Shown piece by piece: positions 941-7,200 of a stretch of DNA of 64,000 bases; the stretch's first letter is position 1, and each line of letters starts with the position of its first letter. Below the pieces are notes generated by a model. That model saw nothing but the letters and a program-made list of their open reading frames with translations. It was not told where the DNA came from and ran no database searches. The translations under genes and the position numbers were made by a program. The DNA is from Bacteroidia bacterium (GTDB lineage Bacteria; Bacteroidota; Ignavibacteria; SZUA-365): positions 449,131 to 513,130 of the forward strand of contig JAOSJT010000001.1 of assembly GCA_027493955.1 (NCBI GenBank). Direction: 5' to 3'.

Positions 941-3010
941 TTAACGTGCCACCAGTATATGACGTTGCAGCGTCTGTCCGCCTTCGCTGAGACGGATGAG
1001 ATACGGTCCGTTTGCCAGTCGGGAGACAGGGATGTTGAGGTTCGAAGTTCCGGCAGATATCTGCGTCGGAGGATGTGCATACACGCATCTGCCCAGCATA
1101 TCGAACACGTCCAGACGCAGCAGTCCTGGTTTGCCGCTGCCGACCTCGATCTGCACCACCTGGTCAGCCGGTTGCGGATGTATACTCCGCATAGTGACAT
1201 CCGGTGTATGCACAGCTTCCACAGCCAGAGGCCGAAGATGTGCCATACCCGCGTTCAGGACCTCGCGGTCAGTTACATCTTCGCTGTGCGTGGTAATGAA
1301 TGCCACGACGCTCAGATTCTCCTCTATACCCTCGGCATCGTAGTCGAAGTGGTAGAGCGCCTCCCATTCGGAGGATGCCGCCGGGGCATCGGGCAGAATG
1401 CTCTCATCGCCCCAACTCCCCGTCGCGGACGCACGCAGTACGTGCCGATGCTCGAAATCAGGAACGGGATTGGGGAGGGAATAGAAGGGATGGTTTCGGT
1501 ATGTCGTATTTCCGCTGAAATAATTTGCCTGGTTCCATCCGCTGCCACTCCCCGTGAGTTTGTCGTGAACCAACCAGCAATGCACACGGTAATCCGCGGG
1601 AGGAGCATAATCACTGAACGTCAGAACCACTCTGGCAGTGATTCTTTTCCTCGCTGCGTCGTAGCTGCTCGTCACATTCACCGACAGGGGAGTGTAGGTC
1701 TGGCGTCGGTCTCCGGTGCGAAGCACCCAGGCTTCATTGCCCCGCGAAATCGCTACTCCTTTCTCACCTTCGAATTTTACCCGATCGATCATGGCTGTCG
1801 GATACGCAGGTGTGAATGCCTGCGCTATGGCCGATCCGGCGGGAATGATCATCGCATCGTTGCCACCCGCATGAATGGCGACCGCGATGGCGTCGGGATA
1901 CGCATCGCGAACACGTTCAACTTGCAGCATGCCGTCCGGGCACCAGCCGCACCATGCACCGGTGAATTCCTCGACAAGCACACGCTTCGGAGAAGTGATA
2001 CCCAGTATCGTGAAAATCGTGGTGCTCAACGTGTTATTCTCCGCGACTTCGTCGTCACCGCCGTTGATGTCGAATATTCTGCATGTCAGTATGTACTCGC
2101 TTCCCGCTGCGTCGGGTGTCCATCGTACGGGATGCACGAATGCGTGCGTCTGATTCGATCGCAGAGTCAGATTGTCGACATCCAGCACCTGCTCCCCGGA
2201 CCCGTTGATACTGTACCCCACGCGGAAAGAGGTTATTGTTTCCGAACCGCTGTTGCGCACAGTTCCGGTGACGCTTACCGATTCCGTGTGACGTATCACC
2301 GCGGGAACGTCGAGCGTTTCGAGCGCGGCATCCAGCGCACTTTGCGACCAAGTGAAAATCGTCCGGATGTCATCGTTCGGGTCCGCAGTCAGGGAAGGGT
2401 ACTCGAGATCAGGGCTGTCGCCGGCCAGAGTCAGCACGCTACCGTCAGCATTGATGGCTCCCATCGTACCCGACATATTCCGCGATGGCTTGCCCGCGAT
2501 CTGCACGATTTCGAAGCCGCCTTTTTCATACAGAACCAGGGCGAAACTCACATTGTGTACCGACCACGAAGAGCCCTTCGGAACAGCGCTCACCCACATA
2601 ATGATATGTCTGCGATCCGGTGCAACACCCGTCGTCTTTGTGCGAACTTCGTTGGACCATATCGAGTGACCGCCCTCGAGGAAGAGGTCATCCCAGAAGG
2701 CGAAGATAGCGTTATGCACGTTTCCCGCGGCATTATCGGGATCGCTGACGGTAGCGGACGGATCAAATGTGATGTACCCATTGTCACTGATGAAATAGCC
2801 ATTGACGCTGGTATCACCAAACATCCAGGAGAAAGGGAGGGTTTGCCATCCTGTCAATACGTCATCCATTGGCCCTGACCCAATCAGGGCGCATCCGTTA
2901 CGGAAGTCACTCATATCCTCTTGCGGACCGGTTGTCGAAGTATAGGTCCAGGTTTGCGCGAGGAGCGGGGAAGTACAGACGATGAGCAAAGCGGTAAGCA
3001 GTGATTTCAT
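941..3010 (-). CDS. secreted Omp28/thioredoxin-like protein with T9SS type A sorting domain
   Basis: The ATG at 3008-3010 is chosen because GGAG lies about 9 bases upstream and a signal peptide follows (MKSLLTALLIVCTSPLLAQ); an in-frame start 27 bases earlier adds nine non-signal residues. The 689-residue protein has an N-terminal beta-rich region, a CARDB-like segment (about 225-330) and an Omp28-type thioredoxin-like domain with EEFTGAWCGWCPDG (Cys 354 and 357). It ends in a typical T9SS sorting tail (VFDMLGRCVYA ... GPYLIRLSEGGQTLQRHILVAR). Predicted destination is the outer surface or medium. The CGWC pair suggests a redox or structural role, but no substrate can be inferred. It is monocistronic, with its own terminator. 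Confidence 0.85.
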   Translation of the reverse strand: MKSLLTALLIVCTSPLLAQTWTYTSTTGPQEDMSDFRNGCALIGSGPMDDVLTGWQTLPFSWMFGDTSVNGYFISDNGYITFDPSATVSDPDNAAGNVHNAIFAFWDDLFLEGGHSIWSNEVRTKTTGVAPDRRHIIMWVSAVPKGSSWSVHNVSFALVLYEKGGFEIVQIAGKPSRNMSGTMGAINADGSVLTLAGDSPDLEYPSLTADPNDDIRTIFTWSQSALDAALETLDVPAVIRHTESVSVTGTVRNSGSETITSFRVGYSINGSGEQVLDVDNLTLRSNQTHAFVHPVRWTPDAAGSEYILTCRIFDINGGDDEVAENNTLSTTIFTILGITSPKRVLVEEFTGAWCGWCPDGMLQVERVRDAYPDAIAVAIHAGGNDAMIIPAGSAIAQAFTPAYPTAMIDRVKFEGEKGVAISRGNEAWVLRTGDRRQTYTPLSVNVTSSYDAARKRITARVVLTFSDYAPPADYRVHCWLVHDKLTGSGSGWNQANYFSGNTTYRNHPFYSLPNPVPDFEHRHVLRASATGSWGDESILPDAPAASSEWEALYHFDYDAEGIEENLSVVAFITTHSEDVTDREVLNAGMAHLRPLAVEAVHTPDVTMRSIHPQPADQVVQIEVGSGKPGLLRLDVFDMLGRCVYAHPPTQISAGTSNLNIPVSRLANGPYLIRLSEGGQTLQRHILVAR

Positions 3011-3224
3011 GCGCAAGACTCCGATATTGCAAAACAAATCAATAAAGATTGACAGTCGTATTCACTGTGAGGTTACTCACGCGACAGTTCATTCGGAGCG
3101 CAATGCCTGCGCCTCTGGGGAAGCGGGCTGTGGATCGCTTGCATTTGATGTCACGCGAGGGAGAGACCGGTGTGCAGCGATGACAGTGTCTCCGAAAATC
3201 GACAGGGGAGAAAATCCGGTGGAA

Positions 3225-3254
3225 AACGCAAGCGGAGGGCATCACCCTCCGCTT
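3225..3254 (-). terminator. terminator of the gatE-gatD operon
   Basis: A perfect 10 bp stem, AAGCGGAGGG (3230-3239) and CCCTCCGCTT (3245-3254), has a 5-base loop. On the minus strand it lies about 65 bases past the gatD stop and is followed by GCGTTTT. The rest of the 3011-3320 gap shows no gene; its left end carries the Shine-Dalgarno of the Omp28 gene. Confidence 0.6.
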
Positions 3255-3320: not shown

Positions 3321-4709
3321 TCAACGATGAATTTCGCTGACGAACTCATCCACCTCGGGAATGCCCCCCTGGAAAATGAGATAGCCATTGTAGGGCTCTC
3401 GCGTCGTTGTTTCACGATTGATGGGCGTGAGCATAATGCGCTTGACTTCTTCGGGATCTTCGCTTTGCCCCATGGCCCAACCAAGTTTGATATAGGCCGA
3501 TTCGGGCAGCATGTTCTCCAAAGGAATCACGCCGAGTTCCATCATTTCGCGACCCGTTTCGTACACGTACATCTGCACATAGCCCCACAGTGTCTGCACT
3601 GTCATGTACACGGCGACACCGGCATCCTGCGCGCGTTTGAGAGCGGGGTACAGCGGTTTGTTGACGTGACCGAGGCCGGTACCGGCGATGATGATACCCC
3701 GATAGCCGTTTTCGACCATCGAGTCGATCATGTCGGCCTTCATGTTCGGATAGTAATACACGATGCCGATGCGATCATCAAAGACGGCGCGGACATCCAC
3801 GTTCCTGTCCTGGCGTCGAGGATTGTAATCGTTGCGCAAATATTTGAAACCGTCACGATTGACGATGGCCAGCGGAATATCGCCGATGGTACGGAAGGTC
3901 GAGCGATAGGACGAGTGCATTTTCCGGACGCGGGTGCCGCAGTGGAGAAGGCCGTAGTCATCGGAGGTCGGTCCGAACATGCAGACCATGACCTCGGCGA
4001 TATCGCAGTCCGCGGCGGTCTTGACGCTATGCATCAGATTCAACGCCGCGTCGGATGACGGGCGGTCGCTGGAGCGCTGCGATCCGACCATCACAATCGG
4101 GACGGGGGAGTTCTGGACCATGTACGACAATGCCGCAGACGTGTGGTGCATGGTGTCCGTACCATGCCCGATAACGATGCCGCGGACGCCTTTCTCAATT
4201 TCCTCGCCGATCTTTTCCGCGAGAATCATGTACTGTTCCGGGCCCATGTTTTCACTGAAGACACCGAAGAGTTTCGTCGTTTCCAGATTGCAGATATCCG
4301 CGAGTTCCGGAACGGAACCGTACAGCTCGCCGGGCGTGAAGGCGGGGATAACCGCGCCGGTACGATAATCCAGTCTGCTCGCGATAGTTCCTCCTGTACC
4401 GAGCAGAACCACTCGAGGCTTCTTGGGATCATACGGGAAGGCCTTTTCCGGAATCTTGTACACCGCTTCTTTGTAGCCGATTTCCTTTCCGGCAATAATT
4501 CTATCCGCCCGGATACCGACGTTGTAGCCGGTCTTCATCTTGATCACGATGTGATCACCGTCAGCAGTTTCGGAGCGCGGCAAAATGATGCCCTCAAAGG
4601 AATCGTCTTCCGTGGTCAGAACTGCGTCGCTCCAGACGCGCACACCGAATTGTTTCAGCGCTTCGAGTGCGGCGCCCTTGTACCCTTTGTATGTATCGTT
4701 GCTGCTCAT
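3321..4709 (-). CDS. gatD: glutamyl-tRNA(Gln) amidotransferase subunit D (archaeal-type GatD)
   Basis: In the archaeal GatDE heterodimer, GatD is the glutaminase/asparaginase-like subunit that releases ammonia to convert Glu-tRNA(Gln) to Gln-tRNA(Gln) in the cytosol. This 462-residue protein has the GatD layout: an N-terminal SH3-like domain (about 20-75, VRVWSDAVLTTEDDSFEG) ahead of a type I asparaginase domain. The catalytic Thr/Thr-Asp/Lys set of the family is visible: T108 in GTGGTIAS, T184-D185 in GHGTDTMHHT and K263 in CGTRVRKMH. The N-terminal domain argues against a plain L-asparaginase. It overlaps gatE by 4 bases (ATGA), giving one operon. GatD is regarded as archaeal; its presence between a T9SS gene and ridA is the odd point. 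Confidence 0.9.
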   Translation of the reverse strand: MSSNDTYKGYKGAALEALKQFGVRVWSDAVLTTEDDSFEGIILPRSETADGDHIVIKMKTGYNVGIRADRIIAGKEIGYKEAVYKIPEKAFPYDPKKPRVVLLGTGGTIASRLDYRTGAVIPAFTPGELYGSVPELADICNLETTKLFGVFSENMGPEQYMILAEKIGEEIEKGVRGIVIGHGTDTMHHTSAALSYMVQNSPVPIVMVGSQRSSDRPSSDAALNLMHSVKTAADCDIAEVMVCMFGPTSDDYGLLHCGTRVRKMHSSYRSTFRTIGDIPLAIVNRDGFKYLRNDYNPRRQDRNVDVRAVFDDRIGIVYYYPNMKADMIDSMVENGYRGIIIAGTGLGHVNKPLYPALKRAQDAGVAVYMTVQTLWGYVQMYVYETGREMMELGVIPLENMLPESAYIKLGWAMGQSEDPEEVKRIMLTPINRETTTREPYNGYLIFQGGIPEVDEFVSEIHR

Positions 4710-6631
4710 GCTGTGCGCTCCTCTTCAAAATATTTCCGAACGGCGTTGGCGACTTCTGCGCCCGGAATGCGTCCGCGCACCTCGTTCATCACGAGGTCGA
4801 GCGTGAGATTCTCTATGTTCTTCTCATCGTGGACGCCGTCGAGAACGATACGCAGTTTCGCATCATGGATGATGTCGTGCAGGTCATCGGGTTGCAGACG
4901 CGGCTTGAGTGTGTCGGAAGACCAGCCGCCATTGAGCGATGCCCGCATCGCGGCGGAAAGGCCGTCGAACGTCATGCGACCTTCCTGGATGGCGGAAAAC
5001 ATAGATCGCAACGTATCGTGATTCCAACTCGTGTAGGCATGCCCTTTACGGTAGAGCCGTCGGGGTATGCGCCATAATGCCACCGCGGCCTGCATCGGAG
5101 TGAAGCCGAATTGTCCGACCGCCTCGTCGTAGAGCGGGGCCAGCGCGGAGTACGCCAAACCATCCACTGCATCGGAAGGTACGCCGTCTGCGATGAAGCG
5201 ACTCCTCCGCTCCCAATACTGCACTGGCATTCCCGCACGAATACGTTCGACGCGCTCAGGCGTGATGCGGAGCGGGGGCAGGTCCGTGTCCGGATACATA
5301 CGCTGCGGACCGGGGAGTATGCGCTCAAAGCCCGTCGTCCCGTCCCGCAACGCTTGCCGGGTCTCCGAAGGAATGCCGATAGTGACTTCCTTGGCACGAA
5401 TGGCAATTTCCTTGACAGCGGTATCCACGTCGGAGGCATCGCCCCAGACGAGCACCACCACATCGGAGGATGTGGCGCCAAGCGCAGCCTTGCACTCTTT
5501 CCATTCGGCGCCGGAGAGTGTTTCACCGGGGCTGTCGGAGTGGATGATGTTCGGGAGAACGGTCAGGCAGGCGATGACGCGAACGCGGTCAGCGATCTCC
5601 CGCGCGAAGGTGGTGCCGTCCTGGGTTTCCCAGCGCAGCAGCCCCGCCCAGCCCGGCAGACGCACGGCTGCGATTTGATGTCCTTTACGGACCGCATTTT
5701 CAATGGGGGTGAATCGAGTGCGCTTGAGAATGCGCGTCACATCCGCAGAGGAATGCGTGAACGTTTCGGTGGTGATGCCGCGGGTAATAAGCTCCTCGCG
5801 AAGGCGCAGGAGATTCCACTGCCGTTGCGCTTCATTGTAGGTAAGCAGTGGCATCAGGCCGATACGCGGTACACCCTTGATTTCGATGCGTGTCCCGCCG
5901 CTGACGCTGACATTCGTATCGGCGCGCGTCGCGCCGATTCCCCGGCGGACATGCCCGGTGGTACGCATCATTTTCCTGAGAATCTGGGCGACATCCGCCA
6001 CTTCCTGCGGTGTGCGCATATCGGGTCCGGTCACGAGCTCGATGAGCGGCATACCCAGTCGATCAGTATTGTACGTTCGTCTGTGGCCGACATCGCTTAT
6101 TTCCCTGCACGAATCCTCCTCCAAACCGAGCTGAATGATCTCGATGTTTCTTTCCCTGTAGGGCACGGAACCGTTGATGCCGCAAATGGCCGTTCGTTGA
6201 AAGCCGGTGGGAATGCTGCCATCGAGATATTGCTTTCTTGCGATGTGCAGTTCGTCCACCAGCGTCAATCCCGCAAGCATGGAGATTTCGAGAGCGAAAT
6301 CGAGCGCTTCCGGATCCACCATGAACGGAGGAGTGTCGTCCATTTCGTAGGTGCAGACGGTTTCGCGATTGACGCGGTAAATAATTTCCTTGCGGGTCTT
6401 GAACTCCATCAAGGCCGTACCGTCGTACTCACCGAGTTCCGAAAGCGTCGGGCGCATGTGACGGAGAATCTCCGCATGAAATTCCTTGCTGTAACGTCCG
6501 GCCGGGCAGCGGCAGAACAGTTTACTGGTGGTCAGCAATTGCTGATGCACTTCCAGTCCGGATCTGAACCCGACAGTGGCATAGTCCTCGGGTGTCATTT
6601 CCTCGAACGGCTTGAATCTGAAATCGTACAT
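4706..6631 (-). CDS. gatE: glutamyl-tRNA(Gln) amidotransferase subunit E (archaeal-type GatE)
   Basis: GatE is the tRNA-binding kinase and transamidase subunit: it phosphorylates Glu-tRNA(Gln) and uses ammonia from GatD. The 641 residues match the usual GatE length of about 620-640, well above GatB (about 480). Visible GatB/E motifs include GLEVHQQLLTTSKLFCRCP (about 26-44), GLEEDSCREI, YNTDRLGMPLIELVTGPD and GATRADTNVSVSGG. A mid-protein insertion (about 300-425) fits the AspRS-like GAD domain that separates GatE from GatB, and PDTDLPPLRI marks re-entry into the catalytic part. The C-terminal helical YqeY/tail domain is intact. It is first in the operon with gatD and no gatC is next to it. 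A sigma70-like promoter candidate lies about 60 bases upstream. Confidence 0.9.
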   Translation of the reverse strand: MYDFRFKPFEEMTPEDYATVGFRSGLEVHQQLLTTSKLFCRCPAGRYSKEFHAEILRHMRPTLSELGEYDGTALMEFKTRKEIIYRVNRETVCTYEMDDTPPFMVDPEALDFALEISMLAGLTLVDELHIARKQYLDGSIPTGFQRTAICGINGSVPYRERNIEIIQLGLEEDSCREISDVGHRRTYNTDRLGMPLIELVTGPDMRTPQEVADVAQILRKMMRTTGHVRRGIGATRADTNVSVSGGTRIEIKGVPRIGLMPLLTYNEAQRQWNLLRLREELITRGITTETFTHSSADVTRILKRTRFTPIENAVRKGHQIAAVRLPGWAGLLRWETQDGTTFAREIADRVRVIACLTVLPNIIHSDSPGETLSGAEWKECKAALGATSSDVVVLVWGDASDVDTAVKEIAIRAKEVTIGIPSETRQALRDGTTGFERILPGPQRMYPDTDLPPLRITPERVERIRAGMPVQYWERRSRFIADGVPSDAVDGLAYSALAPLYDEAVGQFGFTPMQAAVALWRIPRRLYRKGHAYTSWNHDTLRSMFSAIQEGRMTFDGLSAAMRASLNGGWSSDTLKPRLQPDDLHDIIHDAKLRIVLDGVHDEKNIENLTLDLVMNEVRGRIPGAEVANAVRKYFEEERTA

Positions 6632-6692
6632 TTGGAAATACAGAGCTGGTAAGAAAAAAACCGGAAGTCCCGGAGGTCGGTGGTATCACAGT

Positions 6693-6721
6693 AATTTAAG
6701 ACTGTCGTGTACGGGAACCAA
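6693..6721 (-). promoter_or_regulatory. candidate promoter for gatE-gatD
   Basis: On the minus strand, TTGGTT (6716-6721) and TAAATT (6693-6698) are separated by exactly 17 bases, about 62 bases upstream of the gatE ATG. This resembles a sigma70-type promoter. It is a consensus match only. Confidence 0.4.
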
Positions 6722-6752
6722 ATCGAATAGCCCGATTCGGCCCCGCGCTTTT

Positions 6753-6781
6753 TTGGGCGTCTTGCGGAAATTCGGTAGAAT
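6753..6781 (+). promoter_or_regulatory. candidate promoter for ridA
   Basis: TTGGGC (6753-6758), a 17-base spacer and TAGAAT (6776-6781) lie 30 bases before the ridA ATG. The start would be near 6788. Consensus match only. Confidence 0.4.
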
Positions 6782-6810
6782 GTCGGTGGAGAGTTGAAAC
6801 TGAGGTTATC

Positions 6811-7200
6811 ATGAAAACGCGAAAAACTATCAAGAGTCCTACCGCCTGGGAAGATCGTCTCGGGTATTCCCGTGCCGTTCGTGTCGGAAATATGGTGTTC
6901 GTTGCCGGAACAACAGCCGTGAACGAATACGGCGAGGTCGTCGGCCGTGCTGACTCCTACGAACAGGCACGCTACGCCTTCGAAAAAATCGAACGCGCGC
7001 TCAAGGAGGCCGGCGCCGAACTCAAACATGTCGTACGGACACGCATGTATTTGTCGGACATCCGCTGCTGGGAATCCGTCGGCAAAGCGCATGCAGAACT
7101 GTTCGCCGATATCCGGCCGGCCGCGACCATGGTGGAGGTCAACCACCTCATCCATCCGGATCTTATGGTCGAAATCGAAGTCGAAGCCGTTATCCCCTGA
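6811..7200 (+). CDS. ridA: RidA/YjgF/UK114 family protein (enamine/imine deaminase)
   Basis: A 129-residue protein of the usual RidA length. The family forms trimers that hydrolyse reactive enamine/imine intermediates released by PLP enzymes. Visible features are the N-terminal WEDRLGYSRAVRVGNMVFVAGT strand region, the loop NEYGEVVGRADSYEQARYAFEKIERALKEAG and C-terminal TMVEVNHLIHPDLMVEIEVEAV. The family Arg that binds the carboxylate lies in VRTRMYLSDI (about residue 74-84), although the downstream residues differ from canonical RidA, so this may be a Rid subfamily member. The start is supported by GAGG 5 bases upstream. It is divergent from gatE, and mlaF follows 38 bases later on the same strand. 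Confidence 0.85.
   Translation: MKTRKTIKSPTAWEDRLGYSRAVRVGNMVFVAGTTAVNEYGEVVGRADSYEQARYAFEKIERALKEAGAELKHVVRTRMYLSDIRCWESVGKAHAELFADIRPAATMVEVNHLIHPDLMVEIEVEAVIP

What the first reader, a model, noticed from the sequence alone, without database searches (positions are those of the whole stretch)
3321..6631. Archaeal-type GatDE amidotransferase in a bacterial chromosome
Both subunits are full length, overlap by 4 bases and keep their key features (GatD T108, T184-D185, K263 plus the SH3-like N-domain; GatE length and mid-protein GAD-like insertion). Established knowledge: GatDE is treated as the archaeal route to Gln-tRNA(Gln), while bacteria use GatCAB or GlnRS. Here the operon has its own promoter and terminator and lies between a T9SS cargo and ridA, which are clearly bacterial. 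This suggests an ancient or lateral acquisition that may have replaced GatCAB or GlnRS.
Basis: partly seen in the sequence, partly recalled or inferred. Interest (0 to 1): 0.82.

Follow-up and report, generated by a model that had tools for sequence, protein, structure and literature searches.

The report
Archaeal-type GatDE enzyme in bacteria
This bacterium carries an intact copy of a two-part enzyme, GatDE, that reviews call archaea-only, but it is old and common in this bacterial class and in many other phyla, and it sits beside the usual bacterial route to glutamine-tRNA instead of replacing it.

Summary
gatD (3321-4709, -) and gatE (4706-6631, -) are full length, overlap by 4 bases, pass the curated GatD and GatE cut-offs, and keep every catalytic residue checked. 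GatDE has replaced nothing here: the same 5.24 Mb single-contig genome encodes GlnRS, AsnRS, GatA, GatB and two GluRSs. It is not a recent transfer either. All 16 sampled genomes of the order have gatE, as do about a quarter of 197 class genomes, in one tree clade; the 80 best public matches are all bacterial, from many phyla, including the isolate Marinifilum flexuosum. Two 2022 reviews still call GatDE exclusive to archaea. The surprise is the company it keeps: among class genomes at least 90% complete, 43 of 46 with GatDE also have GlnRS (58 of 134 without), often without GatB, and none relies on GatDE alone. The tRNA-Gln genes here are bacterial (U1-A72), not the A1-U72 type archaeal GatDE reads. 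Most likely GatDE amidates Glu-tRNA(Gln) as an auxiliary or repair step beside GlnRS, in this order probably fed by a tRNA-Gln-charging GluRS1. That mechanism is inferred; no activity was tested.

The parts
3321..4709 (-). gatD: glutaminase subunit (GatD_N + asparaginase fold; T108, T184, D185, K263)
4706..6631 (-). gatE: kinase/amidotransferase and tRNA-binding subunit (GatB_N, GAD insertion, helical and tail domains)
3230..3254 (-). hairpin AAGCGGAGGG-CATCA-CCCTCCGCTT followed on the - strand by GCGTTTTCC; likely terminator of gatED
   Evidence: read from sequence; the consensus scan did not list it
6632..6810 (.). intergenic region between divergent gatED and ridA; must hold the gatED promoter, none recognised
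6811..7200 (+). ridA (PF01042), divergent neighbour, not part of the system
941..3037 (-). Omp28 protein with T9SS sorting tail, downstream neighbour, not part of the system

Best explanation
The pair is a bacterial branch of the GatDE family, old in this class. SHOWN: intact genes and catalytic residues, conserved across many bacterial phyla, usually with GlnRS; bacterial-type tRNA-Gln in this genome. INFERRED: GatD releases ammonia from glutamine, GatE phosphorylates the side chain of Glu on Glu-tRNA(Gln) and amidates it to Gln-tRNA(Gln), as in archaea. It is not the sole supplier of Gln-tRNA(Gln), which GlnRS also makes, but an auxiliary or repair route that removes Glu-tRNA(Gln). In this order the likely source is GluRS1, a member of a GluRS clade that includes the only GluRS of GlnRS-less relatives.
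For: Equivalog-level matches to both subunits. Catalytic and metal-site residues essentially invariant in 108 bacterial GatE and 86 GatD; GatD averages 73% identity between bacteria, so it is under strong selection. GatDE is linked to GlnRS (46 of 51 against 62 of 146, p 1e-9; genus level p 1e-5; 41 of 50 GatDE genomes from other groups, two of these as fragments) and never stands alone in a class genome at least 90% complete. Neighbourhood links to the same pathway: glnS-gatE-gatD overlapping in Planctomycetota L167, glnS convergent with gatED in L288, tRNA-Gln(CTG) about 120 bp from gatE in L162. GluRS1 of this order has Tyr or His (Arg in f2) where T. thermophilus D-GluRS has Arg358 and groups (SH-aLRT 100) with the only GluRS found in GlnRS-less family f7 members, which must glutamylate tRNA-Gln.
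Against: Outside this order most class GatDE genomes have an Arg-type GluRS of the same clade as genomes with GlnRS and no amidotransferase found, where GluRS must discriminate; in one genus two genomes with 92% identical GluRS differ in having GatDE. There the substrate is unclear. The tRNA-Gln genes lack the A1-U72 pair read by archaeal GatDE (PMC9499178). The GatE helical and tail region is only 23% identical to other bacterial members against 68% for the cradle, so tRNA choice may have changed.
Confidence: 0.55

Rival explanations
1. GatDE is the main route to Gln-tRNA(Gln) here and has made GatCAB or GlnRS redundant.
For: GatDE is in all order members, while GatB is diverged (418 bits against about 550-600) and undetected in three family f1 genomes.
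Against: GlnRS is intact (763.8 bits) here and present in every sampled f1 genome, and GatB and GatA are still present here. No class genome at least 90% complete depends on GatDE alone.
Confidence: 0.1
2. Bacterial GatDE has been turned to a substrate other than Glu-tRNA(Gln), for example another misacylated tRNA or a non-tRNA carboxylate.
For: Tail region diverged; bacterial tRNA-Gln differs from the archaeal one; many carriers have a GluRS that looks discriminating.
Against: Where neighbours point anywhere they point to glnS and tRNA-Gln; active-site residues are unchanged; the predicted model still matches archaeal GatE best.
Confidence: 0.15
3. Recent lateral transfer from an archaeon, selectively neutral or decaying.
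For: Patchy presence in the class.
Against: Order-wide presence, 100-supported order clade, 99-supported class clade, about 33% identity to the two archaeal GatEs, conserved catalysis.
Confidence: 0.03
4. A full indirect route is run in parallel with GlnRS for bulk supply, or for one tRNA-Gln isoacceptor only.
For: Two tRNA-Gln isoacceptors with different bodies, a GluRS1 of the tRNA-Gln-charging clade, GatDE and GlnRS all present; tRNA-Gln(CTG) next to gatE in L162.
Against: No data on which enzyme charges which isoacceptor; most other GatDE genomes in the class lack such a GluRS.
Confidence: 0.17

Closest known systems
Archaeal GatDE Glu-tRNA(Gln) amidotransferase (Methanothermobacter 2d6f, Pyrococcus 1zq1)
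   Same: Two-gene pair, domain order, catalytic residues, full-length profile match
   Different: Bacterial host; GlnRS present; bacterial U1-A72 tRNA-Gln; own long branch; about 33% (GatE) and 44% (GatD) identity; diverged tail
Bacterial GatCAB
   Same: Same chemistry; GatE and GatB share the kinase fold and tail; GatB also in this genome
   Different: Glutaminase is an asparaginase-type GatD, not amidase GatA; GAD insertion; no GatC
GlnRS + GatCAB coexistence (Deinococcus, Thermus, Bdellovibrio; PMC4206432)
   Same: A direct Gln-tRNA synthetase beside an amidotransferase
   Different: There GatCAB serves Asn-tRNA(Asn); here the second enzyme is GatDE, which in archaea is specific for Gln
GluRS1/GluRS2 pairs (Helicobacter, Acidithiobacillus; PMC3927822)
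   Same: Two GluRSs, one likely serving tRNA-Gln
   Different: Here with GlnRS, GatB and GatDE in one genome

Membership tests
GatDE protein family | GatD: GatD_N plus type I asparaginase fold with Thr-Thr-Asp-Lys catalytic set | tested here: met
GatDE protein family | GatE: GatB_N kinase fold with GAD insertion and C-terminal helical/tail domain | tested here: met
   the tail is modelled with confidence as all-helical but is diverged
GatDE protein family | gatE and gatD as a gene pair | tested here: met
   exception in family f2, where gatD was not found next to gatE
GatDE protein family | Glu-tRNA(Gln) amidation activity and complex formation | not testable with these tools
   needs biochemistry
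Archaeal GatDE pathway | Restricted to archaea | tested here: not met
Archaeal GatDE pathway | No GlnRS in the cell; GatDE is the only route | tested here: not met
Archaeal GatDE pathway | tRNA-Gln with A1-U72 | tested here: not met
   both tRNA-Gln genes are U1-A72 with G73
Archaeal GatDE pathway | Partner GluRS is non-discriminating | tested here: inconclusive
   likely for GluRS1 by orthology; position 358 alone is not diagnostic

The most novel reading that the evidence does not exclude
Bacteria hold a widespread GatDE that is not a Gln-tRNA supply enzyme but a fidelity enzyme of GlnRS-using cells, repairing Glu-tRNA(Gln) whatever synthetase made it, with tRNA recognition re-tuned to bacterial tRNA-Gln.
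Probability: 0.3. Interest if true: 0.8.

Novelty: new variant of a known kind. Interest (0 to 1): 0.6.

Why it matters
Two 2022 reviews state that GatDE exists only in archaea (PMC8762117, PMC9499178), and the argument that GatDE was in LUCA and lost in bacteria, and that it kept GlnRS out of archaea, leans on that. An intact GatDE that co-occurs with GlnRS in many bacterial phyla contradicts the first point and makes the second testable in cultured bacteria such as Marinifilum. It also affects genome-based rules that read 'GlnRS present, GatCAB absent' as proof of a discriminating GluRS and a defunct indirect route (PMC3927822).

Tried and rejected
GatE-GatD fusion in Acidobacteria L164/L165: a read-through frame in high-GC DNA, not real. 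Conserved neighbourhood across phyla: none except gatE-gatD. Arg358 as a test of GluRS discrimination: not diagnostic alone, since single Arg-type GluRSs occur in GlnRS-less genomes. tRNAs near gatED: of five ARAGORN calls, two (L139, L165; 94-95 nt, odd sequence) are doubtful, so no enrichment is claimed. Paper on bacterial GatDE: none found in eight library searches, but the library lacks most subscription journals, and Sheppard and Soll 2008 itself was not held. The structure model has low confidence over the cradle and is used only as a check.

Full report
OBSERVATION. The window holds gatD (3321-4709, -, 462 aa) and gatE (4706-6631, -, 641 aa) overlapping by four bases. Both exceed the curated cut-offs of the GatD and GatE equivalog models (GatD 493.6 bits against 310; GatE 504 against 456) and match Pyrococcus and Methanothermobacter GatDE in the PDB. 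Domains are GatD_N and asparaginase in GatD, and GatB_N interrupted by GAD in GatE. The named catalytic residues are present and invariant in 86 bacterial GatDs; eleven catalytic or metal-site positions of GatE (chosen from established knowledge of the GatB/GatE fold and from the alignment) are essentially invariant in 108 bacterial GatEs. A model of GatE is of low confidence over the cradle but high over the C-terminal helical region, and Foldseek ranks archaeal GatE first.

IS IT AN ARTEFACT? The genome is one contig of 5.24 Mb, 100% complete by the tool's estimate. A relative in the same family carries the pair at 75% (GatE) and 84% (GatD) identity, and it occurs in the isolates Marinifilum flexuosum DSM 21950 and Labilibaculum sp. 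K2S and in complete chromosomes. A chimera is excluded for practical purposes.

IS IT REPLACING ANYTHING? No. The same genome encodes GlnRS (763.8 bits), GatB (418 bits), GatA (481.9 bits), AsnRS (466 bits) and two GluRSs. It has two tRNA-Gln genes (TTG, CTG), both U1-A72 with G73, and a U1-A72 tRNA-Asn. Archaeal GatDE is reported to read A1-U72 and the D-loop of tRNA-Gln (PMC9499178), so the archaeal cognate is absent here.

DISTRIBUTION. gatE is over cut-off in 49 of 197 class genomes and in all 16 genomes of the window's order. In public genomes at least 569 stretches encode a relative; the best 80 are all bacterial and span Ignavibacteria/Chlorobiota, Bacteroidota, Calditrichota, Aminicenantes, Planctomycetota, Cloacimonadota, Neomarinimicrobiota, Krumholzibacteriota, Fermentibacteria, Myxococcota, Gemmatimonadota, Acidobacteriota, Caldisericota, Electryoneota, KSB1 and Stahlbacteria (most are metagenome-assembled). 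The other hits were not individually identified; archaea are expected among them. In the GatE tree the bacterial sequences lie on one side of a fully supported long branch from two archaeal sequences; the window order is a 100 clade, and the class with Calditrichota and two Aminicenantes a 99 clade (quick search, SH-aLRT). Divergence of GatDE between phyla is of the same order as that of GlnRS. This is an old bacterial gene pair, mostly inherited within groups and often lost. Whether it came from archaea or predates the split is not resolved, because only two archaeal sequences were available.

COMPANY. Class genotypes at least 90% complete: GatDE+GlnRS+GatB 27; GatDE+GlnRS 16; GatDE+GatB 3; GatDE alone 0; GlnRS+GatB 49; GlnRS alone 9; GatB alone 75; none found 1. 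GatDE goes with GlnRS (p 4e-10; genus level p 1e-5) and against GatB (p 3e-5). Within family f7 the contrast is clean: 7 of 7 GatDE genomes have GlnRS and 6 of 7 lack GatB, while 12 of 13 without GatDE have GatB and no GlnRS. In 50 GatDE genomes from other groups, GlnRS is over cut-off in 39 (two more as fragments) and GatB in 17. Related genomes are not independent, so the p values are indicative.

MECHANISM. The chemistry is inferred from homology: GatD makes ammonia, GatE activates and amidates Glu on tRNA. The open question is where Glu-tRNA(Gln) comes from when GlnRS is present. In this order GluRS1 (beside glnS) has Tyr or His (Arg in f2) at the position of T. thermophilus Arg358 and belongs to a 100-supported clade with the only GluRS found in GlnRS-less f7 genomes, which must charge tRNA-Gln. 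So here a source is likely. In other carriers of the class GluRS is mostly of the Arg type also used by GlnRS genomes in which no amidotransferase was found; in one genus the GluRSs of a carrier and a non-carrier are 92% identical. There GatDE would act on occasional misacylation, or on something else. Links to the same pathway exist but are few: glnS-gatE-gatD in L167, glnS convergent in L288, tRNA-Gln beside gatE in L162. The helical/tail region of GatE is far less conserved than the cradle (23% against 68%), which would fit changed tRNA recognition.

VERDICT. The protein-family assignment is firm. The pathway role is not the archaeal one as tested by host, GlnRS and tRNA. What remains interesting is that a supposed archaeal signature enzyme is common in bacteria that already have GlnRS. 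Profile libraries already name these proteins, and no bacterial study was found in the open library, which cannot exclude one elsewhere.

Noticed in passing
G000 C1:4745195-4746598 (L079) and C1:824860-826200 (L080): GatB of the window's genome is unusually diverged (418 bits against about 550-600 in most of the class), GatA is barely over its cut-off, and GatB was not detected in three genomes of the same family; GatCAB may be under relaxed selection here.
   Followed up: partly
L077 8450-9892 (-) and L078 5666-7099 (+): Two GluRS paralogues of different clades, one beside glnS, coexist with GlnRS, GatB and GatDE, an unusual full set.
   Followed up: yes
L131 (G209, Neomarinimicrobiota) and L138 (G215, Fermentibacteria): Draft genomes with GatDE in which neither GlnRS nor GatB was found: possible bacteria that depend on GatDE alone.
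   Followed up: partly
L099 and L013 (family f2 of the window's order): gatE without gatD next to it although 1.5-1.7 kb of downstream sequence is present.
   Followed up: no
L132 5756-5832 (+): tRNA-Glu(CTC) with a U1-A72 pair about 165 bp upstream of gatE; U1-A72 is the pair seen in both tRNA-Gln genes of the window's genome.
   Followed up: no
G229 C264:5680-6189, G241 C78:262760-263263: GatB-tail-like domain directly after GlnRS, resembling the Yqey-appended GlnRS of Deinococcus.
   Followed up: no
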